DNA of 64,000 nucleotides from Legionella birminghamensis (GTDB lineage: Bacteria > Pseudomonadota > Gammaproteobacteria > Legionellales > Legionellaceae), in the NCBI RefSeq assembly GCF_900452515.1, contig NZ_UGNW01000001.1:3307501-3371500 (forward strand), given 5' to 3'. The notes below the pieces were generated by a model that worked only from the letters and a program-made list of their open reading frames with translations, was not told the DNA's origin and did not search any database. Shown here piece after piece: positions 3,660 to 16,562 of this stretch. Made by a program: the position numbers and the translations under genes. Every line of letters begins with the position of its first letter. Within the stretch, counting starts at the first letter, position 1.

Positions 3660-4219
3660 TTACCTACTAAATAGAGCAAATATTTTACCCGATGAACTAA
3701 TTTAAGTCAAAATGGTTCATCTATCGGGTGCTATTAGTAGAGTCCCGCCTTGATGTACAGGTCTCTTTTTCCGCTCCGAATCCCCGCGGCTGCGACCCAT
3801 AGCTATCTACACAAGTGCATGAGAATTAAAAGCTATCGAATCCCCGCGACCGCGGGGCCACACGAAGCCAATTGAATGTTAAGCACACTTGTTTATGACT
3901 ACCTGTTAAATCTTATTTTTTGGCAACATTGAAACTTGTCTGACGGCCATGCTAATCCTACAGGCATGGGCCCCGCGGTCGATGCCGCGGGGATTCGGTG
4001 ATCGCAGTCGCGGGATTCGGTGGTCGCGGCCGTGGGGATTCGAAGGGGCTGCGCAGCGGGGGATTCGGATGGTCGTAGCTGCGGAGATTCGACTTAGACA
4101 AATACTTTGTTTGCGTCTGACCTGCGTTGGCTAAGCCAGATCGAAGCGCTGTTCAGGCATCGATCTGGATTGCTCCGCTTTGCTCGCAAAGACGGTAATA
4201 GGAAGTAAGGCGGGAGAAA
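3660..4219. repeat. 560-bp gap of GC-rich hairpin repeats
   Basis: No credible gene. The stretch holds (1) a 203-bp element at 3796-3998 that recurs inverted at 62199-62408, (2) several variants of the palindromic unit CCCCGCGGTCGATGCCGCGG with flanking GGATTCG, repeated at 3960-4090, and (3) a degenerate copy of the second half of the 92-bp array unit (ATCTGGATTGCTCCG...GCAAAGACGG) at about 4160-4196. A short open frame at 3949-4134 is only translated repeat. Confidence 0.75.
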
Positions 4220-4858: not shown

Positions 4859-5839
4859 ATGCGAGATGCCTTTGTGAGTTGGCAAAAAATTTTAGCGCAG
4901 GGATTTGCCTCTTCGACTGAGTTGTTGCAGTTTCTGGGCTTGGCCACTCAAGACAGTTCGGCCGCGGAAAGGTTATTTAAAACCCGCGTTCCTCGCGGTT
5001 TTGCCGCCCGCATGCAAAAAAATAACCCAGATGATCCCTTGCTGTTGCAAGTCCTCGCTACTGAAAAAGAGCTTTTTGACGCCGAAGGCTATCAACAGGA
5101 TCCCCTGCAGGAAAACAACAGCAATCCTTTAAATGGCTTATTGCATAAATACAATGGACGCGTTCTATTAACATTGACTGGTACTTGTGCTGTCCACTGC
5201 CGCTATTGTTTCCGCAGACATTTTCCTTATCAGAAAAATAATCCTGGCAGAGAAGGCTGGCAAAGGGTTATTGAATATATCAGGACACATCCCGATGTAT
5301 CTGAGGTAATATTGAGCGGCGGCGATCCCCTATTAGCCTCTAACAGGGTTTTGAAAGAGGTGCTCGGGGAAGTTGATCAGATTGACCATGTGACAACGAT
5401 ACGTTTCCATACACGCGTTCCAATTGTGCTGCCTGAACGTATCGATGAAGAGTTTTCAAGCATTTTAAGTGCATTGCGAAAGCACAAGGTGGTGGTACTG
5501 CATTGCAATCATGCCCAGGAAATCAATGAAGACGTTGAAACAGCCTGCCGGCAATTGCGGGCGTCGGGTTGCCATTTACTCAATCAGGCGGTTTTGTTAA
5601 AGGCGGTGAACGCCGAAGCAAGCACTCTGGCGGAGTTAAGTAAACGCTTATTCAGCTGTGGAATACTGCCATACTACCTGCACGTATTGGATAAAGTCGC
5701 CGGTGCTGCGCATTTTGATTTACCCGATGAAAAAGCATCCGCGATTTTCCGGGAGCTGCAGACCTTGCTTCCTGGATACCTGGTGCCGCGACTGGCGAGG
5801 GAAGAAGCAGGAAAAAGCAGTAAAACTTTGCTTTATTAA
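4859..5839 (+). CDS. epmB: EF-P (R)-beta-lysine pathway: lysine 2,3-aminomutase EpmB
   Basis: Radical-SAM enzyme that isomerises L-lysine to beta-lysine, which EpmA then attaches to EF-P Lys34. The 326-residue protein carries the radical-SAM cluster motif CxxxCxxC at Cys110, Cys114 and Cys117 (CAVHCRYC), followed by FRRHFPY. It also has the SGGDPLL segment and, near the end, the PYYLHVLDKVAGAAHF stretch typical of the family, where PLP is bound through a nearby lysine. It is divergent from efp, a common arrangement. The epmA partner is not in the window. The start at 4859 has no strong SD. Confidence 0.95.
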   Translation: MRDAFVSWQKILAQGFASSTELLQFLGLATQDSSAAERLFKTRVPRGFAARMQKNNPDDPLLLQVLATEKELFDAEGYQQDPLQENNSNPLNGLLHKYNGRVLLTLTGTCAVHCRYCFRRHFPYQKNNPGREGWQRVIEYIRTHPDVSEVILSGGDPLLASNRVLKEVLGEVDQIDHVTTIRFHTRVPIVLPERIDEEFSSILSALRKHKVVVLHCNHAQEINEDVETACRQLRASGCHLLNQAVLLKAVNAEASTLAELSKRLFSCGILPYYLHVLDKVAGAAHFDLPDEKASAIFRELQTLLPGYLVPRLAREEAGKSSKTLLY

Positions 5840-5930
5840 AGCCTGGGCTTTCGAATTTACCCGGACAATATTGAATCAATGGCAATCCTCCGTATAATTC
5901 GCCTGCACTGTTTACTGCATTCTTAACGAT

Positions 5931-6794
5931 TCAGACTATGGAAGTAATAACATCTGCGAAATAGGATGGCGTTTCTGTTCTCGCATACCAGGCAAGTACG
6001 AGCTTATTCTCATAAAACTGACCTGAGTTAAGGACTATCAATTGTTCTTTCTCCAGAAAAGGCTGACAAAGTTCAGCCGATAAAACACCATAACCATACC
6101 CATCTTTAAATAAGCTGAGCAATGACTCATTAATATTCACAAAATGGCGTTCGGATTGAACGTATTTCAGCAGATCATAGTGTTTCAGATAATTGAGGGT
6201 CATGGGATCTGACTCATCAAAATCAATAATTCGTTCTGTTTGTAAAATATCTTTCAAATTCCGGCCAGCCCAGTCCGCTGTAGCCACCAGGACATAACGC
6301 TCTGGCCGGATCGCTTTCACTTGCATTTCTTTAAAGAGATGCTGCGGTTCAATAATTACAAAATGACTACTGCCCGTTTGCAGCGAGGCAATTCTGTGCT
6401 CAGAATCATTAATGTGGAAAGTAATAAGTAAGCGAGGATATTTTTTTAATAATGGGCGACAGGCAGGAATTATCCGTGAGGACATGATACTGGTGGGACC
6501 GCTGATGCACAATCGCACAGTCGCCTCCACCCCCGCCCCATGAATATTGGATAAGGTAATCCCTTCCAGCTCTCGAGACGCCTGGCAATAACGGAGCAAA
6601 GCCTCCCCTTCGGAGGTTAGCAAGACGCCGTGATGGCTGCGTATAAAGAGTGTGGTGCGTAATCTGGTTTCCAAAGCACGTATACGTTGAGTAACCGCTG
6701 TCTGACTTAAGTGCACCGCCTTGGCTGCTGCATGCATACTTTTATGCTGGGCGACAGCAAAGAAAATCTGCAATTGAGGATCCAGTAATTTCAT
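5931..6794 (-). CDS. LysR-type regulator, ArgP/LysG-like
   Basis: Transcription factor of 287 residues. An N-terminal winged helix-turn-helix (residues about 4-62: FFAVAQHKSMHAAAKAVHLS then TAVTQRIRALE) is followed by a LysR co-inducer-binding domain. The N-terminal wording MKLLDPQLQIFFAVA resembles the ArgP/IciA branch, which senses lysine and controls amino-acid export, but that subfamily call is tentative. SD AAGGATAA precedes the ATG at 6794. It lies downstream of, and codirectional with, the YcaO operon, separated by a 190-bp gap with a repeat hairpin. It may or may not control that operon. Confidence 0.88.
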   Translation of the reverse strand: MKLLDPQLQIFFAVAQHKSMHAAAKAVHLSQTAVTQRIRALETRLRTTLFIRSHHGVLLTSEGEALLRYCQASRELEGITLSNIHGAGVEATVRLCISGPTSIMSSRIIPACRPLLKKYPRLLITFHINDSEHRIASLQTGSSHFVIIEPQHLFKEMQVKAIRPERYVLVATADWAGRNLKDILQTERIIDFDESDPMTLNYLKHYDLLKYVQSERHFVNINESLLSLFKDGYGYGVLSAELCQPFLEKEQLIVLNSGQFYENKLVLAWYARTETPSYFADVITSIV

Positions 6795-6881
6795 TTATCC
6801 TTCTCAAATGACATTTTTTAAGCTCCACCTCCGCGGCTTGCCCTTGGAGCATTAAAGCGCAAAAGCCTGAGGGGCGTATCG

Positions 6882-6927
6882 CCGTTCGGCCTGATGTGCC
6901 GATTTAGCTCCGTCTCAGGCCGAACGG
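6882..6927. repeat. Dispersed hairpin repeat after the YcaO operon
   Basis: A perfect 13-bp inverted repeat (CCGTTCGGCCTGA at 6882-6894; its complement at 6915-6927). It shares its sequence with the hairpin at 1610-1670. It is placed downstream of the second YcaO stop and might end that transcript, but there is no U-tract. Confidence 0.7.
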
Positions 6928-6983
6928 TCCCAATACAATCAGATCCAGATTGTTTCTATTCGTTCAAAGCTTGTAACCATTTC

Positions 6984-8222
6984 TCAAGAGCAAGCTGAAG
7001 TACGCCGGTTGAGCCTGCTATTCCGAATAAAATTCATACCTCTTGTATTGGGTAGAATATGTTTTCCGATTTCTACCAGATAAAATTGCTCCAGGCCAGG
7101 AATAATATACTTCAGGCAATGAAAACCGCTATCAAGTTCAGCGATAGTAGTCTTGAATATAGAAAAATTCTGCTTGCGAATGCTTTGAATAATGCAATCT
7201 AACTGATGGCTTAGCGAAGAAGCCCCTTTATAATCAGGAAGCGAATCAAAATGCTTCATTTTAAATTGAGCTGACAGACTGGCAATATCCGCCATGGCAC
7301 ATTGAGCCAATAATGGCTTTTCCGCAAAATTGCTCAAGGTTTTCAGCTGATTTTGCAGCAAATGATCATTAAACAAATGCAATGGCTGTAAGGATTCCAA
7401 AAGTGCCCGCTCCAGAGCGTAGTCTTTATAAAGCGATGTACCACAACCAATGGGTTGAATGGGCATCGATTGTTTAGTCAGGCTGACCAGAACACTTGGA
7501 ATACCTATATCGCTGGTGATATCCACCAGAAGGAGCTCCTCGTCGTACACCTGCTCAATATGATTGATCATTTCTTTTAAATACTCAGGCACTGTATCTT
7601 TGTCGATGATCGAAACAGGTCCATGCAATAAAAACGCCTGAATGAGAAATAAAGAGTAAGCATCACGCTCTATCGCTTCATTCAGGGCATGAATACTGGC
7701 TTCATCCTCATTGGTACCCGAGGCAATGCCTGAATCACAGGCCTGCCAGGAATAAGGCTCATAATTAAATTCATCCCGGGCAGCCGGGCTTTTGGCGTAG
7801 CGCGGATCGATTAAATACAATGGATAATACAGTATTTCACCAGAGGCAATTTCTTCAAATCTGGCGAAGGGTAATTCTCCTGTTTCCTGATATATTGAAG
7901 GAGTCAGGAGTTGATGTGTTTTCAAGGGATTTGCAATCCGCGGATCACTTAAAGAAAAATAATTATTCTGATTTTTTTGACAAAAATCGAACACCGCATA
8001 ATGTTCCAGGGCTTCAAAACAAGCACTTACCATCGATTGAATCCCGATTCCTTTCCCGCAACCATAAAAGATGGAATGCGATTGATCATCAATTAATTTG
8101 CAATGAAAGGTCTTAATCTCACTGCCATATTGCTGGAAATCAGCATGTAAATTCAATTGGTTAAGGGTTAGCTTTGCTTTTCCCATAGCCATCCAGGATG
8201 GCATTTGTCTTTCATAATTCAT
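6984..8222 (-). CDS. YcaO-domain ATP-dependent cyclodehydratase-like enzyme (YcaO-1)
   Basis: YcaO enzymes use ATP to activate backbone amides of peptides, giving azolines, thioamides or amidines. This 412-residue protein has the family signatures: a glycine-lysine loop GCGKG (54-58) ahead of SACFEALEHY (Glu70, Glu73), then GIASGTNEDEA with NEAIERDAY (Glu182, Glu185, Arg186), then GCGTSLYKD and RALLESLQ (Arg272, Glu276, Gln279). These are the Mg/ATP-binding positions, so the enzyme looks active. It lacks the C-terminal PxPxP of azoline-forming YcaOs, and no E1-like or TfuA partner is nearby. It overlaps the upstream YcaO by 11 bp (SD GGAG), implying coupled translation. The natural substrate is inferred to be the 57-residue peptide encoded at 9502-9675. 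Confidence 0.88.
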   Translation of the reverse strand: MNYERQMPSWMAMGKAKLTLNQLNLHADFQQYGSEIKTFHCKLIDDQSHSIFYGCGKGIGIQSMVSACFEALEHYAVFDFCQKNQNNYFSLSDPRIANPLKTHQLLTPSIYQETGELPFARFEEIASGEILYYPLYLIDPRYAKSPAARDEFNYEPYSWQACDSGIASGTNEDEASIHALNEAIERDAYSLFLIQAFLLHGPVSIIDKDTVPEYLKEMINHIEQVYDEELLLVDITSDIGIPSVLVSLTKQSMPIQPIGCGTSLYKDYALERALLESLQPLHLFNDHLLQNQLKTLSNFAEKPLLAQCAMADIASLSAQFKMKHFDSLPDYKGASSLSHQLDCIIQSIRKQNFSIFKTTIAELDSGFHCLKYIIPGLEQFYLVEIGKHILPNTRGMNFIRNSRLNRRTSACS

Positions 8223-9444
8223 TTAATATACTCCATGCCCGCTGCTTAATCGCCACACATTTTGCGTCACGGATTAAACTAAAATTTTCAAGCTCTGGGA
8301 TTAAGGTGTAAGTGATCGTGACACCAGTGGATGACTGGTATAAATCAGCGACATAAATAGTCGCCTGACAAGCCCCTAAATGTTCGGCCATCAATTGAAT
8401 TTGCTGACTTAAGGTGTTTGGCAAACAATATGAAGGAACATCATCCCAATTGAGCTCTACACAGATTTTATTATCTACCAGCATTTGCAGATCGCCGATC
8501 ATCGCCTTTAACAGCAAAGGGCTTTTCTCAAAAAACCTGGCATTTTGCTCACGATAAACCCTGGCATTTGCATTGAATCGCTCTTTGTATTGTACCGACT
8601 CATACAGGGCCTGCTTCAATGCCGCTTCTTTAGAAAGTGAGGCGCCAAACCCCTGGGGCTGCAGCAGCATCGTCTGCCGGGTAAAACTGACAACGAAGGC
8701 TGGGATAGAATTATCACTGCTGATGTCTACCACTAATATATTTTCATCATAATGCTGCTCAATGGCCGCTATGATTTCAGTGACAGATGGAGGCAAGGTG
8801 TTCTTTCGCATCACCCTTGCAGGAACTGGCTTATGATGAAGCACTGTTTTTAGCAGAAACAACGAATAGGCGTCCCGCTCGACCCATTGATTAATGCCAT
8901 GGATGATCGCTTCTTCTCGCGTCGCTCCGATAGCAAGCCCGATATCATTGCTCAGTGAAGCAATGTTTTCATCAATAAAAGGATAAATTAAAGCCAATGG
9001 GTAATATATGCTGCCTCCATTAAAGAGGGGGTGCAATTCAATCCAGGGGTAAGGTTTTTTCTGGTAGCTTTCTTCCAGTAAACGTTTGGGCATTAGTTGA
9101 TGCTTCGTCAGAAAACTCGTGGATGGCGAACTCGCGGTAGAAAATGAATACTGGTTGAGTAAATTATTTTTATACAGACTGATGCCAATTGATTTTTCTA
9201 ATGATTCAAACAAGGCTTTTACTTTAGCCTGTTCCTCGCTGCCGCTTGCTCCCCCTAAGGAAGACAGCTCCAACTGATGGTTATTGGCAGCACATAGATA
9301 AGTACTTAAATGAATCCCCTTGTGCTTCAAACTGCCTATACATTGAAAAGCGGGCTTAATGTGATTTTTTAAAGCTTCATCAAGACCAATCAATAAAGCA
9401 TCATTAAGATTGTAAGCACGTTGTTCAACCTGTAAATTATCCAT
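8212..9444 (-). CDS. Second YcaO-domain protein, diverged active site (YcaO-2)
   Basis: A 410-residue homologue of the next gene, with the same order of blocks. Several key positions are changed. The GCGKG loop is replaced by LGGASGSEE, the first Glu of the EAIERDAY block is Gln (NQWVERDAY), and the Arg of RALLESLQ is Gln (QALYESVQ). FESLEKS keeps two glutamates (80, 83). It may be a non-catalytic partner that binds the peptide or forms a heterodimer with YcaO-1, or it may act on a different residue. The start at 9444 has a strong AGGAG. It follows the small peptide gene by 57 bp and overlaps YcaO-1 by 11 bp. No PxPxP tail. Confidence 0.85.
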   Translation of the reverse strand: MDNLQVEQRAYNLNDALLIGLDEALKNHIKPAFQCIGSLKHKGIHLSTYLCAANNHQLELSSLGGASGSEEQAKVKALFESLEKSIGISLYKNNLLNQYSFSTASSPSTSFLTKHQLMPKRLLEESYQKKPYPWIELHPLFNGGSIYYPLALIYPFIDENIASLSNDIGLAIGATREEAIIHGINQWVERDAYSLFLLKTVLHHKPVPARVMRKNTLPPSVTEIIAAIEQHYDENILVVDISSDNSIPAFVVSFTRQTMLLQPQGFGASLSKEAALKQALYESVQYKERFNANARVYREQNARFFEKSPLLLKAMIGDLQMLVDNKICVELNWDDVPSYCLPNTLSQQIQLMAEHLGACQATIYVADLYQSSTGVTITYTLIPELENFSLIRDAKCVAIKQRAWSILNEL

Positions 9445-9463
9445 AATGACTCCTAATTTCCCC

Positions 9464-9485
9464 TGGGGCCTGGCTTACAGCCCCA
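9464..9485 (-). promoter_or_regulatory. Intercistronic stem-loop between peptide gene and YcaO-2
   Basis: TGGGGC at 9464-9469 pairs with GCCCCA at 9480-9485 around a 10-nt loop, immediately upstream of the YcaO-2 ribosome site. There is no U-run, so it is more like a processing or stabilising structure than a terminator. Such elements often set a high precursor to low enzyme ratio in RiPP operons. Confidence 0.5.
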
Positions 9486-9501
9486 CTCGGGATAATACAG
9501 T

Positions 9502-9675
9502 TTACAGTGTTACATCAACGGCATCAGGATTTAACAATTCCTCAAGCGCTTTATACTTTTCCATATCAAACTCACCATAGCCAGGACCTGCAAACTTTGT
9601 CCGCCCATAGTCTTTATCCAGGGTTTTATAGCTGATGATAGTGTCTAAATTACTATTGTTTTCAAATGTATCCAT
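9502..9675 (-). CDS. 57-aa candidate RiPP precursor peptide
   Basis: A 57-codon frame starting MDTFENNSNLDT and ending LNPDAVDVTL. It has a good SD (AAGGA, 8 nt from the ATG at 9675) and lies first in the operon ahead of two YcaO genes. The peptide has no cysteine. Its centre is glycine-rich (FAGPGYGEFD, residues 28-37) between a polar N-terminal part and an acidic amphipathic C-terminal part (MEKYKALEELL). By position it is the likely substrate of the YcaO pair. The candidate modified segment is the GPGYG region, but leader, core and follower boundaries are guesses. It could instead be a small accessory protein. Confidence 0.68.
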   Translation of the reverse strand: MDTFENNSNLDTIISYKTLDKDYGRTKFAGPGYGEFDMEKYKALEELLNPDAVDVTL

Positions 9676-9790
9676 ATATTTTCCTTAGTGTTTTTATATC
9701 GCCAGAAAATAATAGGCAAATTAGAACGCTGAGCGTTAATGATAAGAATCAATCACGTGATAAGAAATTATGATTAGCAAAACACAGCGG
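9676..9790 (-). promoter_or_regulatory. Upstream region of the YcaO operon with operator-like repeats
   Basis: Between the ppk stop and the peptide gene. On the minus strand a TATAAA lies close to the start with TTGCCT 15 nt upstream, a possible but short-spaced promoter. Further upstream sits an exact inverted repeat AACGC-TGA-GCGTT (9725-9737). A 9-bp direct repeat TGATAAGAA occurs at 9740-9748 and 9758-9766, with TCACGTGA between its copies. These look like factor-binding sites; no factor is assigned. Confidence 0.4.
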
Positions 9791-11878
9791 CTATACTTTT
9801 TTGAACTCATTACTGGCTGTTTTTGCATAAATTTGAAGTAATTTTTCTTGCGCAGAATGGGAGCCATTGCACAAGGGCTTATAGCTTCCATCCGTTTGCA
9901 TTTCCCAGGCATACATATTGTCTTTTAAATAGTTTTTGAATATTTCCTGTTTAATGCGTTTCCTGATCCCTTCCTCCTGAATTGGAAACAATACTTCAAT
10001 GCGATTGTATAGGTTGCGCTCCATCAAGTCTGCGCTGGCACAATAATAATGTTCCTCGTCATCAATCCGGAAATGATAGACACGATGATGTTCAAGGAAC
10101 CGCCCCAATACAGAGAGGACGCGGATATTGTCAGATATTCCAGGGATCCCTGGTTTAAGGCAGCACATACTGCGTACAATTAAATTAATTTTGACCCCCG
10201 CCTGCGAGGCCAAGTACAGCGCCTGAATCATGGCTTTATCAGTCAGCCCGTTAATTTTTATGTTGATTTCCGAATTTTTTCCTTCTTTTGCCGCTTCACA
10301 GCAGGCTTCAATATGACTCATAATATTCTTTTGCAAGGTGAAGGGTGAATGGGATAATGCTTTCAGTTTGACCGTGCGGCCCAAACCGGTTAGTTGCTGG
10401 AAGATGATTTGGGTATCTGCAGTGATTGACGGATCGGAGGTTAGTAAGCCAAAATCAGTATAACGCTTTGCAGTTTGTTCATGGTAATTTCCTGTACCAA
10501 GATGTACATAGCGCTTGAGTTTGCCATGCGTCCTTCTCACCACCAGTGTCATTTTGGCATGTGTTTTATAGCCCATTACCCCGTAAAGAACTAAAACACC
10601 GGCTTCGTGCAGGCGGTTGGCTAATTTCAGATTAGACTCCTCATCAAAACGGGCACGAAGCTCTACAACGGCCGTTACCTCCTTGCCGGAACGTGCAGCT
10701 TCAACCAGGGCCCTCACCATTACGGATTCCGAATGTGTTCTATACAGAGTCTGTTTTATCGCCAAAACATTGGGATCAGCAGCAGCCTGGCGTACAAAGT
10801 CAATAATGACTTCATAGCTTTGGTATGGGTGATGCAGGAAAATATCCTGTTCATCCAGCACATTAAAAAGATTACGGCGCTGATGAATATAATCAGGGTA
10901 TTGAACAGTCAATGGCGGATAGTTCAAGTCGGGGCGATCGATTCGGTTAATAGCGCTGTAATAGCGCTGCAAATTCACCGGGCCATCGCAATAATAAGTA
11001 TCTTCATGGTGCAAATGATGCTTTTGCAAGAGGAAATCGACAATATGTTCGGGGCATTTTTTATCGACCTCCAGACGCACCACATGGCCATAATGCCTGG
11101 AGAACAGTTCGCGCTGTACTGCAACAGCCAAATCCTCAATTTCCTCTTCCCGCAAGAATAAGTCGCTGTTGCGTGTTAAACGAAAAGGGTAACAGCCATT
11201 AATTTCCATCCCCGGAAACAGGCTGCTGATATGCGTTTGGATAATGGAAGAAAGATACACGAAATAACTGCCGCCATCTGTACACAACTCAGAAGGCAAA
11301 TGGATCATCCGAGGCAGGGAACGGGGCGCATGGACTACGGCGTAATCAATATTCCGATCGAAAGCATCCTTGCCGCGCAAGGAAATAATAAAGTTGAGAC
11401 TTTTATTGAACAAGCGCGGAAATGGATGCGCCAGATCGAGAGCAATAGGGCTAACGATAGGCAGCACCTCATTTTTAAAATAATGCTTCGCCCATAAATG
11501 AATATCTTCAGTCCACTCCTCCACATCATAGAAGTGAATGTTTTCCTTGCGCATTTCCGGGAGCAGCTGTTTGTTGAAAATCTGATAAAGCTCATCGCTT
11601 AAACTATGGGCTTTTTTACTGACCTGACTAAACACTTCATCGGCCCGTAAACCGTCTATATTCAACTTAGGGGAGGAAATGGCTATTTTTTCTTTGAGGC
11701 CTGCGACCCGGATTTCAAAAAATTCATCAAGATTACCGCAGCAAATGCATAGAAAACGCATCCGCTCCAGCAAGGGAATACGCTCATCCTTTGCCAGTTG
11801 CAAAACCCTTTCATTAAACGCGAGGGCAGTGAATTCCCTGTTTATAAAAAAATCCGGATTGTCCAAAATCTTGCTCAA
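9791..11878 (-). CDS. ppk: Polyphosphate kinase
   Basis: PPK1 makes inorganic polyphosphate from ATP through a phosphohistidine intermediate. Its 695 residues match the usual length. Visible are the N-terminal REFTALAFNERVL segment, the GYKTHAKMTLVVRR block with the likely phosphorylated His, and HLGTGNYHEQTAKRYTDFGL with a second conserved His region. The start is a TTG at 11878 with a strong AGGAG SD six bases away; no better ATG fits the family N-terminus. It is the last gene of a probable three-gene operon, 37 bp after the ChrA-like gene. Confidence 0.97.
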   Translation of the reverse strand: MSKILDNPDFFINREFTALAFNERVLQLAKDERIPLLERMRFLCICCGNLDEFFEIRVAGLKEKIAISSPKLNIDGLRADEVFSQVSKKAHSLSDELYQIFNKQLLPEMRKENIHFYDVEEWTEDIHLWAKHYFKNEVLPIVSPIALDLAHPFPRLFNKSLNFIISLRGKDAFDRNIDYAVVHAPRSLPRMIHLPSELCTDGGSYFVYLSSIIQTHISSLFPGMEINGCYPFRLTRNSDLFLREEEIEDLAVAVQRELFSRHYGHVVRLEVDKKCPEHIVDFLLQKHHLHHEDTYYCDGPVNLQRYYSAINRIDRPDLNYPPLTVQYPDYIHQRRNLFNVLDEQDIFLHHPYQSYEVIIDFVRQAAADPNVLAIKQTLYRTHSESVMVRALVEAARSGKEVTAVVELRARFDEESNLKLANRLHEAGVLVLYGVMGYKTHAKMTLVVRRTHGKLKRYVHLGTGNYHEQTAKRYTDFGLLTSDPSITADTQIIFQQLTGLGRTVKLKALSHSPFTLQKNIMSHIEACCEAAKEGKNSEINIKINGLTDKAMIQALYLASQAGVKINLIVRSMCCLKPGIPGISDNIRVLSVLGRFLEHHRVYHFRIDDEEHYYCASADLMERNLYNRIEVLFPIQEEGIRKRIKQEIFKNYLKDNMYAWEMQTDGSYKPLCNGSHSAQEKLLQIYAKTASNEFKKV

Positions 11879-15794: not shown

Positions 15795-16562
15795 ATGGGA
15801 GAATTGAAGACAACAACCCGCGGCAGCAGTGTTGGCGAATACTTGCCTTATTCCGCCGCAATCAAGCAAGCCTGCCAGGTTGTCGCCTATAGTCCAGAGG
15901 GTGCAAGATACCTGGAACAGCAAACCATAAACAAAATGACGCGTTTGGGAAAGCTTGAAGAAGCGCAGCAAGTGCTTAAGGTCCTTGCCGATTTTCGCCG
16001 TAGTGTGGAGATGCAGCAAGATCGTCCTTCGCCACAATCAAATGAGGGGCCTGTCCGTTCTGACTTCCAGAATTTTCAACATAATTTTGCCCAATCCGCT
16101 ATAGAAACGATTAAAAAGCTGGCAAGCGGCCCAATAAAACTTGATTTTGCCCTTAACCAGGAAACCAAAATAATACGTGGATTTTCTTCTAATGGTAATG
16201 TCCTGCCAGCCGGAGATCCATTGCTGGCTGCCCTTGATCTGACCTTTAATGCCTGGCTGGCAGAAAGAAATATGATAAGCAAAGGGAGCAGGATTTACGA
16301 ATGTGATAGCAATGGGGATATTAAGAAAGACGCCGCCGGAAATCGAGTCAATGTCGATGCGGTTAAGCTGAGTAAAATGATTAGTGACCCGGAACATGGT
16401 TTTCAAAAGACCTTATCCAGCAAAGGAGTAAACGTTACTGTAGAGCAGCACCGCTATCCAGAGCAACGCGCCGAAGCCAAGCAGGCGGCAAGTGCCCAGG
16501 CACAGCGCGAGCCAGACCAGGAAGCCCCCACTTCAGGCTCCGGGATGGGCGCCGGGGGTTAG
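15795..16562 (+). CDS. Orphan protein with GxGMGxGG tail
   Basis: A 255-residue soluble protein, unrecognised. The N-terminal 75 residues are helical. A Gln/Ala/Glu-rich stretch (KQAASAQAQREPDQE) precedes a glycine-rich end, GSGMGAGG. The 897-residue WH2 protein at 45921 ends with the similar GPGMGG. No signal peptide or enzyme motif is seen. It is a single-gene unit between fadE and a degenerate repeat piece. A secreted effector is possible but unsupported. Confidence 0.75.
   Translation: MGELKTTTRGSSVGEYLPYSAAIKQACQVVAYSPEGARYLEQQTINKMTRLGKLEEAQQVLKVLADFRRSVEMQQDRPSPQSNEGPVRSDFQNFQHNFAQSAIETIKKLASGPIKLDFALNQETKIIRGFSSNGNVLPAGDPLLAALDLTFNAWLAERNMISKGSRIYECDSNGDIKKDAAGNRVNVDAVKLSKMISDPEHGFQKTLSSKGVNVTVEQHRYPEQRAEAKQAASAQAQREPDQEAPTSGSGMGAGG

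What the first reader, a model, noticed from the sequence alone, without database searches (positions are those of the whole stretch)
6984..9675. Compact YcaO operon with a Cys-free 57-aa candidate precursor
Seen: a 57-codon gene with a good SD, an intercistronic stem-loop, then two YcaO genes overlapping by 11 bp. Known: YcaO enzymes modify peptide backbones, and bottromycin-type systems use two stand-alone YcaOs without E1-like partners. Inference: a RiPP-like system with an amide-backbone product (amidine, thioamide, or oxazoline from Ser/Thr) in the GPGYGEF region. No transporter, protease or E1/TfuA partner is encoded nearby, so it may act inside the cell or use unlinked export.
Basis: partly seen in the sequence, partly recalled or inferred. 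Interest (0 to 1): 0.9.

Follow-up and report, generated by a model that had tools for sequence, protein, structure and literature searches.

The report
Portable peptide and YcaO cassette
A four-gene unit found at different places in a few Legionella species makes a small peptide with an almost unchanging middle part, two related YcaO enzymes, one of which seems to have lost part of its active site, and a gene switch; it probably makes a chemically altered peptide, but what the peptide does is not known.

Summary
In detail: a 57-codon peptide gene and two YcaO genes overlapping by 11 bp. Peptide and pair occur together in the same 5 of 143 Legionellaceae genomes. (2) YcaO-B has lost residues equivalent to E. 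coli YcaO K61, S71, E199, R286; YcaO-A keeps them. (3) A 28-bp upstream element occurs once per genome. Best reading: YcaO-A with degenerate partner B activates a backbone amide in the invariant block under LysR control. Chemistry is unknown; a TfuA-less Gly thioamide is my first guess. Unexplained: peptide residues 19-45 resemble a segment of actinobacterial siderophore-type binding proteins (59% identity). Exporter genes are not in the unit but lie close by in three carriers.

The parts
9737..9764 (-). 28-bp upstream element CTTATYACGTRATNNATTCTTNYCATTA, 62-89 bp before the peptide start codon; likely LysR-type binding site (inferred)
   Evidence: Shared by all five cassettes in upstream DNA that otherwise aligns poorly; with up to 3 mismatches it occurs exactly once in each of 5 genomes, 0 in the reversed-pattern control. 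The pattern was drawn from these five sites, so their recovery is by construction; the uniqueness is not.
9502..9675 (-). 57-aa peptide gene, candidate substrate; invariant block Y16-L48
   Evidence: a weak model (mean pLDDT 59) suggests a helix at 38-48
8212..9444 (-). YcaO-B, 410 aa, YcaO family with degenerate motif (S67, K76, Q186, Q278 in place of K, S, E, R)
   Evidence: PF02624 4.9e-35; residues
6984..8222 (-). YcaO-A, 412 aa, all motif residues looked at intact; start overlaps YcaO-B stop by 11 bp (11 bp in three genomes, 17 bp in two)
   Evidence: PF02624 2.6e-35; overlap from coordinates; closest solved sequence MJ1094 YcaO, E 4e-12
5931..6794 (-). LysR-type regulator, 287 aa, ArgP/LysG-like, last gene of the cassette
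   Evidence: PF00126/PF03466; ArgP/LysG models 104.6-106.2 bits, below their cut-offs; next to YcaO-A in all five genomes, the other four 76-92% identical
5840..9790 (.). Extent of the inserted unit between epmB (ends 5839) and ppk (ends 9791)
   Evidence: epmB and ppk lie 18-98 bp apart (aligned ends) in 6 of 10 other congeners; the exact junction bases were not determined

Best explanation
A self-contained, horizontally moving operon that makes a backbone-modified peptide with a fixed middle part. Steps: (1) the LysR-type protein encoded at the operon's end acts on the single 28-bp element upstream of the peptide gene (inferred). (2) The 47-57-aa peptide is made; its block YKTLDKDYGRTKFAGPGYGEFD[MI]EKY..LE.LL is held by the enzymes, perhaps through its C-terminal acidic helix (shown: conservation; inferred: binding). 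(3) YcaO-A, which keeps the ATP/Mg motif residues, activates one backbone amide near G30-G34. YcaO-B, made with it through overlapping genes and lacking four motif residues, is the non-catalytic partner in the place that E1/ocin-ThiF or TfuA proteins hold elsewhere, as a heterodimer or peptide holder (inferred). (4) The change is most likely a thioamide or another small amide exchange at a Gly, less likely an azoline or an N-terminal amidine (inferred). (5) Because the block hardly changes and no export, protease or immunity gene belongs to the shared unit, the product more likely has one fixed role, inside the cell or as a signal, than that of a fast-diverging bacteriocin (inferred, and weakened by exporters lying near the unit in three carriers). 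The confidence is for steps 1-3 together.
For: Peptide and pair occur in the same 5 of 143 genomes. 29 of 33 residues of Y16-L48 are invariant, cross-lineage pS is 0.87-1.07; the longest invariant run is 22 residues against 17, 16 and 17 in YcaO-A, YcaO-B and LysR. The four genes are the only ones shared by all five loci, in four different contexts, and fill the gap between ppk and epmB. YcaO-A keeps and YcaO-B loses K61/S71/E199/R286 equivalents; in 33 other YcaOs these are K or R in 33, S or G in 33, E in 33, R in 31. A and B group together (88/84, not starred) inside a 100/98 clade of stand-alone YcaOs. 2 of 5 carriers lack any TfuA match. TfuA-less thioamidation has precedent: M. jannaschii lacks TfuA yet has thioglycine (PMC5589413, passages), its YcaO MJ1094 is the closest solved sequence to A, and E. 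coli, which has no TfuA, thioamidates uL16 with YcaO (PMC13063428, abstract and passages). Small ORFs lie just upstream of related stand-alone YcaOs in four of five plasmid-collection records inspected (of 30 hits; the fifth was not scanned) and in G200.
Against: No product, mass or expression data. Over its whole length the peptide is not clearly more conserved than its enzymes: 54% of columns invariant against 52% (A), 47% (B), 69% (LysR); 33-column windows with 29 or more invariant residues also exist in A (6 of 391) and LysR (8 of 259), none in B; near-lineage dN/dS of the peptide (0.17-0.21) exceeds that of the YcaOs (0.12-0.15). Such conservation also fits a structural subunit. Residues 19-45 resemble a protein segment, which the substrate reading does not explain. 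Exporters near the unit in G107, G108 and G055 weaken step 5. Five cassettes, two lineages. B keeps E75, E78, E191, E202 and R203 equivalents, so it may still bind ATP; its model was too poor to judge (pLDDT 35.8). The A-B grouping is weak and long branches were flagged; 17 of the 33 reference YcaOs are near-copies of one type. An unlinked E1/ocin-ThiF partner was not searched for. LysR binding to the element is not shown, and by eye the related LysR clade has another upstream motif.
Confidence: 0.45

Rival explanations
1. The peptide is not a substrate but a small protein subunit, ligand binder or regulator of the YcaO pair, which modifies something else, as E. coli YcaO does with uL16. Its conserved block is an interface or binding loop, perhaps taken from or converged on the ligand-cleft segment of a siderophore-type binding protein.
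For: Residues 19-45 align without gaps to proteins of six actinobacteria (the two tested are Peripla_BP_2, PF01497), 59% identity in the profile alignment, hhalign P 4.5e-8; with the seed EFDMEKY held fixed, 0, 0, 0, 1, 0, 0 of 2000 shuffles reach the six scores and 0 of 40000 for the best. The six came out of 312 pattern-matched stretches and look like one family, so this is one draw of some 300. Helix predicted at 38-48. Protein targets of YcaO exist (PMC13063428, PMC5589413, passages).
Against: Gene order peptide then YcaO recurs in related loci; no Pfam match for the peptide at E up to 1; no YcaO found in the six actinobacterial loci; no similarity to uL16 (545 of 1000 shuffles as good); presence in 5 of 143 genomes argues against a housekeeping target.
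Confidence: 0.25
2. An exported RiPP antibiotic, loosely bottromycin- or streptamidine-like, in which both YcaOs may be active and export and trimming use genes outside the unit.
For: Two YcaOs without partner as in bottromycin (passage in PMC8442711). In G108 an ABC transporter (707 aa) and a C39-peptidase ABC exporter (696 aa) begin about 1.9 kb beyond LysR, with 94-95% identical counterparts in G107; in G055 an ABC transporter (600 aa) lies right after LysR.
Against: These genes are not shared by all carriers; none is in the window unit, and of the L032 flanks I looked up only one ORF (no Pfam match). No Cys, variable N-terminus, a block that does not diversify; YcaO-B degenerate.
Confidence: 0.17
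3. The product, or a basic amino acid linked to it, is the ligand of the ArgP/LysG-like regulator, so the cassette is a closed regulatory circuit (can hold together with the best explanation).
For: LysR most like ArgP/LysG, which use Lys, Arg or His as co-effectors (PMC5648196, passages). All 12 non-cassette homologues (45-50%) were inspected: an arginase-family gene is the neighbour in 8 and a DapF-like gene in 3, neither in 1. LysR has the highest share of invariant columns, 69%.
Against: Scores below the ArgP/LysG cut-offs; regulators of this type often sense a pathway input rather than its product (recalled); no ligand data.
Confidence: 0.12
4. A decaying remnant without function.
For: Rare; in G059 a YcaO-A fragment (residues about 235-314) is all that tblastn finds in the 15-kb locus.
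Against: dN/dS 0.08-0.15 in the YcaOs and 0.05-0.08 in LysR where computable; all four genes open in five genomes.
Confidence: 0.02

Closest known systems
Archaeal stand-alone YcaO of McrA glycine thioamidation (MJ1094, PDB 6PE3/6PEU)
   Same: Closest solved sequence to YcaO-A (E 4e-12) and to B (1.5e-8); stand-alone; M. jannaschii lacks TfuA (PMC5589413, passages; silent in the TfuA control).
   Different: Substrate is a large protein; single YcaO; YcaO-A scores 68.6 on the NCBIfam equivalog against a cut-off of 365.
Bottromycin biosynthesis (two YcaOs without partner proteins)
   Same: Two YcaOs and a short precursor.
   Different: Here the peptide is Cys-free with a variable N-terminus, the second YcaO is degenerate, and the unit has no tailoring or export genes.
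Streptamidine (ami) family, including two-YcaO subsets in Frankia, Rhodococcus and Clavibacter
   Same: Stand-alone YcaO(s) next to a short peptide not rich in Ser/Thr/Cys (PMC8442711, parts 1 and 2 of 5 read, plus passages).
   Different: No hydrolase, dehydrogenase or transporter genes in the unit; the paper reports the family from Actinobacteria and Firmicutes; sequence relatedness could not be tested here.
YcaO-TfuA clusters of Legionella (plasmids; G057, G098, G129)
   Same: YcaO, in three genomes in tandem pairs.
   Different: TfuA next to the YcaO in G000 and others (in G057, G098, G129 by eye); the members tested fall in another YcaO clade.
Fixed-sequence peptide-derived products such as PQQ and mycofactocin (recalled)
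   Same: Precursor with a nearly constant part.
   Different: Different enzymes; analogy of logic only.

Membership tests
YcaO superfamily (PF02624) | Profile match over the curated cut-off | tested here: met
   122.7 and 121.8 bits against 25.7
YcaO superfamily (PF02624) | ATP/Mg motif residues intact | tested here: inconclusive
   YcaO-A: kept; YcaO-B: K61, S71, E199, R286 equivalents changed in 5 of 5. That these four belong to the ATP/Mg site is recalled; only E202 was seen as mutated in a paper (PMC13063428, passages).
Azoline-forming (LAP/TOMM) systems | C-terminal PxPxP on the YcaO | tested here: not met
   absent in 10 of 10 A and B proteins; motif described in PMC12338566 (passages)
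Azoline-forming (LAP/TOMM) systems | E1-like or ocin-ThiF partner in the cluster | tested here: not met
   only four genes in the shared unit; an unlinked partner was not searched for
Azoline-forming (LAP/TOMM) systems | Cys/Ser/Thr-rich core | tested here: not met
   0 Cys in 5 of 5; invariant Ser/Thr in the block only T18 and T26
YcaO-TfuA thioamide systems | TfuA gene adjacent or in the genome | tested here: not met
   none in the unit; 2 of 5 carrier genomes have no TfuA match, 3 have one elsewhere
McrA-type TfuA-less thioamidation | Sulfur placed on a Gly amide | not testable with these tools
   needs mass data
Bottromycin class | N-terminal core with Cys, C-terminal follower (recalled) | tested here: not met
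   N-terminus variable, no Cys; no NCBIfam hit for the peptide at E up to 10
Streptamidine class | AmiA motif A/B and FecBCDE-like and ABC transporter genes | tested here: inconclusive
   transporter genes absent from the unit; the motifs were not available to compare
Peripla_BP_2 binding proteins | PF01497 domain | tested here: not met
   no Pfam match for the peptide; only a 27-residue segment resembles such proteins
ArgP/LysG regulators | Score over the curated cut-off | tested here: not met
   104.6-106.2 bits against 197-297
RiPP (general) | Ribosomal peptide that is post-translationally modified | not testable with these tools
   peptide gene shown by conservation; modification not shown

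The most novel reading that the evidence does not exclude
A portable one-molecule regulatory circuit: a peptide with a fixed core, which looks like the ligand-side segment of a siderophore-type binding protein cut loose as a separate gene, is altered by a YcaO working with a catalytically dead YcaO (a pseudoenzyme in place of E1 or TfuA), and the product is read inside the cell by the cassette's own ArgP-like LysR: a YcaO-made intracellular signal or metal/ligand binder rather than an antibiotic.
Probability: 0.12. Interest if true: 0.85.

Novelty: new variant of a known kind. Interest (0 to 1): 0.6.

Why it matters
Many stand-alone YcaOs have no known substrate. Here substrate candidate, enzyme, probable pseudoenzyme partner and regulator come as one 3.95-kb unit whose limits are marked by its insertion between two neighbouring genes. 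It makes testable the idea that a degenerate YcaO can stand in for the usual partner proteins, and it offers a peptide whose middle part is as constant as an enzyme's best-kept stretch, unlike the usual fast-changing YcaO-modified precursor.

Tried and rejected
I had dropped the binding-protein likeness as an effect of the search pattern; searches show it is more than that. I had called the unit free of exporters without looking at the flanks; one search shows exporters near it in G108 (and, by BLAST, G107) and in G055. For these reasons I lowered the best explanation from 0.50 to 0.45 and the novel case from 0.15 to 0.12, raised the subunit and exported-RiPP rivals, and lowered the LysR-circuit rival from 0.15 to 0.12.

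uL16 mimicry: the block aligns to E. coli uL16 no better than 545 of 1000 shuffles. Phage PaBG hit (E 0.1) lies between tail-fibre genes: taken as chance. No relative found in viral contigs, in phages for YcaO-A, or in plasmids for the peptide. YcaO-A against genome contigs found nothing; that only says its exact patterns gave no relative, as two carriers are in that collection. Peptide profile in 369 class genomes: G000, plus three matches at E 0.005-0.05 inside frames of 601-662 codons, taken as chance. YcaO-A profile in 369 class genomes: G000, G200 and G487. Weak peptide matches in G044, G046 (two), G058, G079, G090 and G134 (E 0.04-1) were dropped as chance; tblastn of the cassette on the G090 locus found nothing. 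Anti-phage defence: 0 PADLOC matches for four proteins. Rfam: 0 matches in 5800-10100. The model of YcaO-B (pLDDT 35.8) was not used; no fold search was run. Stem-loop as a conserved regulator: rejected. In one search nine reference YcaOs fell out through a strand slip in my script; one search repeats it with 43 of 43 rows kept (31 YcaO places for which loci were held, of more listed).
Full report
What is there. The window lies at G000:C1:3307501-3371500, a Legionellaceae genome of 3.79 Mb in two contigs. On the - strand run, in order, a 57-aa peptide gene (9502-9675), YcaO-B (8212-9444), YcaO-A (6984-8222) and a LysR-type regulator (5931-6794).

The peptide gene is real. It occurs in the same five genomes as the YcaO pair, of 143 Legionellaceae searched (YcaO-A at 63-100% identity; the peptide). 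Two further genomes gave only weak YcaO-A matches: G005 holds divergent YcaOs, G059 a decayed piece. A YcaO-A profile over 143 genomes of the order again gave the five carriers and the G059 piece. In the six comparisons between the two lineages of carriers (window, L029, L030 against L031, L032) the peptide has pS 0.87-1.07 and pN 0.12-0.16; the YcaOs have pN 0.21-0.26 and LysR 0.12-0.16. Residues Y16 to D37 are identical in all five, and 29 of the 33 residues Y16-L48 are invariant; the first 15 residues and the tail after L48 vary in sequence and length (47 to 57 aa).

How unusual is that conservation? As a control I counted invariant columns in all four proteins. Whole length: peptide 31 of 57, YcaO-A 221 of 423, YcaO-B 201 of 425, LysR 202 of 291. 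Windows of 33 columns with 29 or more invariant: peptide 1 of 25, A 6 of 391, B 0 of 393, LysR 8 of 259. Longest invariant run: 22, 17, 16, 17. Identity to the window copy is 78 and 74% for the peptide in the two distant carriers against 59-65% for the YcaOs, but 86 and 87% against 85-89% in the two near ones, where the peptide's dN/dS (0.17-0.21) is above that of the YcaOs (0.12-0.15). So the block is kept as well as the best stretches of YcaO-A, while the ends are free. A paper on E. coli YcaO says that YcaO-modified precursors tend to diverge fast even within a class (PMC13063428, discussion passage); this block does not.

The unit is portable and complete. Among ORFs of 80 codons or more in 18-20 kb around the five copies, the two YcaOs and LysR are the only ones shared by all, with the peptide before them; other flanking ORFs are shared only by G107 and G108, apart from 27-37% matches among ABC-type proteins of G107, G108 and G055. 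In the window the four genes fill the 3.95 kb between epmB (ends 5839) and ppk (ends 9791). In the other 10 genomes of the genus both genes are present; between aligned ends they are 18-98 bp apart in six (G105, G107, G108, G109, G110, G112) and 1.4-6.1 kb apart in four (G103, G104, G106, G111), and of the ten only G107 and G108 have the pair, elsewhere. So the four genes came in together at a site that takes other inserts too. The unit has room for no other gene of size; the exact junction bases were not found.

Flanks of other carriers. In G108 an ABC transporter (707 aa) and a C39-peptidase ABC exporter (696 aa) begin about 1.9 kb beyond LysR on the other strand, with 94-95% identical counterparts in G107; in G055 an ABC transporter without a C39 match (600 aa) lies right after LysR. 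They are not part of what the five share, but they keep an exported product possible. I looked up Pfam families for only one ORF of the L032 flanks (no match).

One YcaO is intact, one is not. Alignment with 33 other YcaOs (31 from genomes searched here, 17 of them near-copies of one type, plus one Streptomyces and one Pantoea) and, with E. coli YcaO gives the E. coli numbering. YcaO-A keeps the equivalents of K61, S71, E75, E78, E191, E199, E202, R203, R286, E290 and Q293 in all five. YcaO-B has S, K, Q and Q for K61, S71, E199 and R286 in all five and keeps the others. In the 33 references K61 is K or R in 33, S71 is S or G in 33, E199 is E in 33, R286 is R in 31. Changing ATP-binding residues of E. 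coli YcaO, E202 among them, gave incomplete thioamidation (PMC13063428, passages); that K61, S71, E199 and R286 belong to that site is recalled. In the tree A and B join (88/84, not starred) inside a 100/98 clade with stand-alone YcaOs of G200, Streptomyces and Pantoea; long branches were flagged. I read B as a pseudoenzyme partner that arose by duplication. The overlap of the two genes is 11 bp in three genomes and 17 bp in two (coordinates), which suggests coupled translation.

Control of expression. Upstream DNA aligns poorly except for a 28-bp block 62-89 bp before the peptide start (9737-9764). With up to three mismatches the pattern is found once in each of the five genomes; the reversed control finds none. 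It contains T-N11-A dyads, best TAAT-N11-ATTA, which I recall as typical of LysR sites; binding is inferred. The LysR resembles ArgP/LysG (104.6-106.2 bits) but stays below the cut-offs. Of 134 genomes searched, 17 have a LysR of this clade: the five carriers (76-100%) and 12 others (45-50%). All 12 neighbourhoods were inspected: an arginase-family gene beside it in eight (Pfam for one; the rest by BLAST to it), a DapF-like gene in three, neither in one. ArgP/LysG proteins use basic amino acids as co-effectors (PMC5648196, passages). This hints at a basic amino acid, or something like one, as ligand.

An unexplained likeness. The pattern scan of genome contigs with the peptide gave 312 stretches, of which eight passed tblastn: two Legionella carriers and six actinobacterial proteins with [YW]GEFDIEKYA. 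Two of the six were checked and are Peripla_BP_2 proteins (PF01497), a family that I recall as siderophore and cobalamin binders. The pattern contained EFD[MI]EKY, so part of the match is by choice. But with EFDMEKY held fixed, 0, 0, 0, 1, 0 and 0 of 2000 shuffles of the rest reach the six scores, 0 of 40000 for the best, and hhalign aligns residues 19-45 without gaps at 59% identity, P 4.5e-8. Set against some 300 candidates, and as the six look like one family, this is suggestive, not proof. No YcaO was found in the six loci. It may mean that the block descends from, or imitates, the ligand-side segment of such a protein.

Chemistry. TfuA is absent from the unit, and 2 of 5 carriers have no TfuA match. 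No A or B protein ends in PxPxP, the mark of azoline-forming YcaOs named in PMC12338566 (passages). The peptide has no Cys, and its variable N-terminus makes an amidine with the N-terminal amine unlikely. The closest solved sequence to YcaO-A is MJ1094 (E 4e-12), from a methanogen that has thioglycine without TfuA (PMC5589413, passages). My guesses: thioamide at G30, G32 or G34 about 0.35, amidine or other amide exchange 0.25, azoline 0.1, the rest for no change of the peptide.

Function. The shared unit holds no export, protease or immunity gene, and the block barely changes. This leans to one fixed role, inside the cell or as a signal, perhaps sensed by the LysR; it is inference, weakened by the exporters above. 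I inspected five of the 30 plasmid-collection records that match YcaO-A: a small ORF lies directly upstream of the YcaO in Streptomyces and Vibrio (annotated) and in Nonomuraea and Pantoea (mechanical ORFs); Acinetobacter was not scanned; G200 has one too. They are 38-53 aa and were not shown to be related to the Legionella peptide.

In print. Searches for YcaO with Legionella (6 papers, listing), YcaO with amidine and RiPP, two or degenerate YcaOs, YcaO with McrA/TfuA and YcaO or RiPP with Legionella names listed no paper that by title or start of abstract describes this unit. The one Legionella paper looked into (PMC3218107, one passage) draws a YcaO and a TfuA protein on conjugative elements. 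Many journals are not held.

Verdict. A real, sharply bounded, conserved four-gene unit: a new variant of the short-peptide-plus-YcaO kind, with a probable pseudo-YcaO and an unusually constant peptide core. Modification and role are not shown.

Noticed in passing
L036, L037 (G000:C2:81612-82963 and 200693-202044): The second contig (204 kb; 1.2 kb of it matches transfer genes of a Legionella hackeliae plasmid at 77%) carries two YcaO genes, each followed by TfuA. YcaOs of about 353 aa with similar scores recur in many Legionellaceae genomes; a YcaO and a TfuA gene are drawn on conjugative elements in PMC3218107 (one passage).
   Followed up: partly
L029 398-4605 (G108), counterparts in L030: C39-peptidase ABC exporter and a second ABC transporter, with a 115-aa ORF without a Pfam match beside them, a few kb from the cassette: bacteriocin-type export genes of unknown cargo.
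   Followed up: partly
L074-L079, segment matching peptide residues 19-45: Actinobacterial Peripla_BP_2-type proteins share an ungapped 27-residue likeness with the peptide.
   Followed up: partly
L116, L117, L118 (G057, G098, G129): Legionellaceae clusters with two tandem YcaOs, TfuA-like and ThiF-like proteins and, in G057 and G129, a 64-aa peptide ending in RGGSATS.TTTGAAVA and a short tail: likely thioamide or azole RiPP clusters (names by eye).
   Followed up: no
L119 (G200:C71): A stand-alone YcaO related to the cassette's, preceded by a 49-codon ORF and flanked by two sensor-kinase-like genes (identity by eye).
   Followed up: partly
window 6882-6927 and 1610-1670: Two copies of an inverted repeat CCGTTCGGCCTGA...TCAGGCCGAACGG (4 half-sites with up to 1 mismatch, 0.04 expected); one sits in the 189-bp gap between YcaO-A and LysR, which is 0-37 bp in the other cassettes.
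   Followed up: partly
L033 (G059:C22, locus 7426-7663, - strand): Decayed remnant of YcaO-A (residues about 235-314); tblastn found no other part of the unit in the 15-kb locus: probably a past carrier.
   Followed up: partly
between ppk and epmB in G103, G104, G106, G111: Gaps of 1.4-6.1 kb where six others have 18-98 bp: the site may be an insertion hotspot; contents not read.
   Followed up: no
window 15795-16562: DotY homologue (PF23131, 227.8 bits).
   Followed up: no
window 3958-4101 and L116 2463-2645: ORFs in two species share ESPRHRPRGP near their ends, perhaps a dispersed repeat of Legionella genomes.
   Followed up: no
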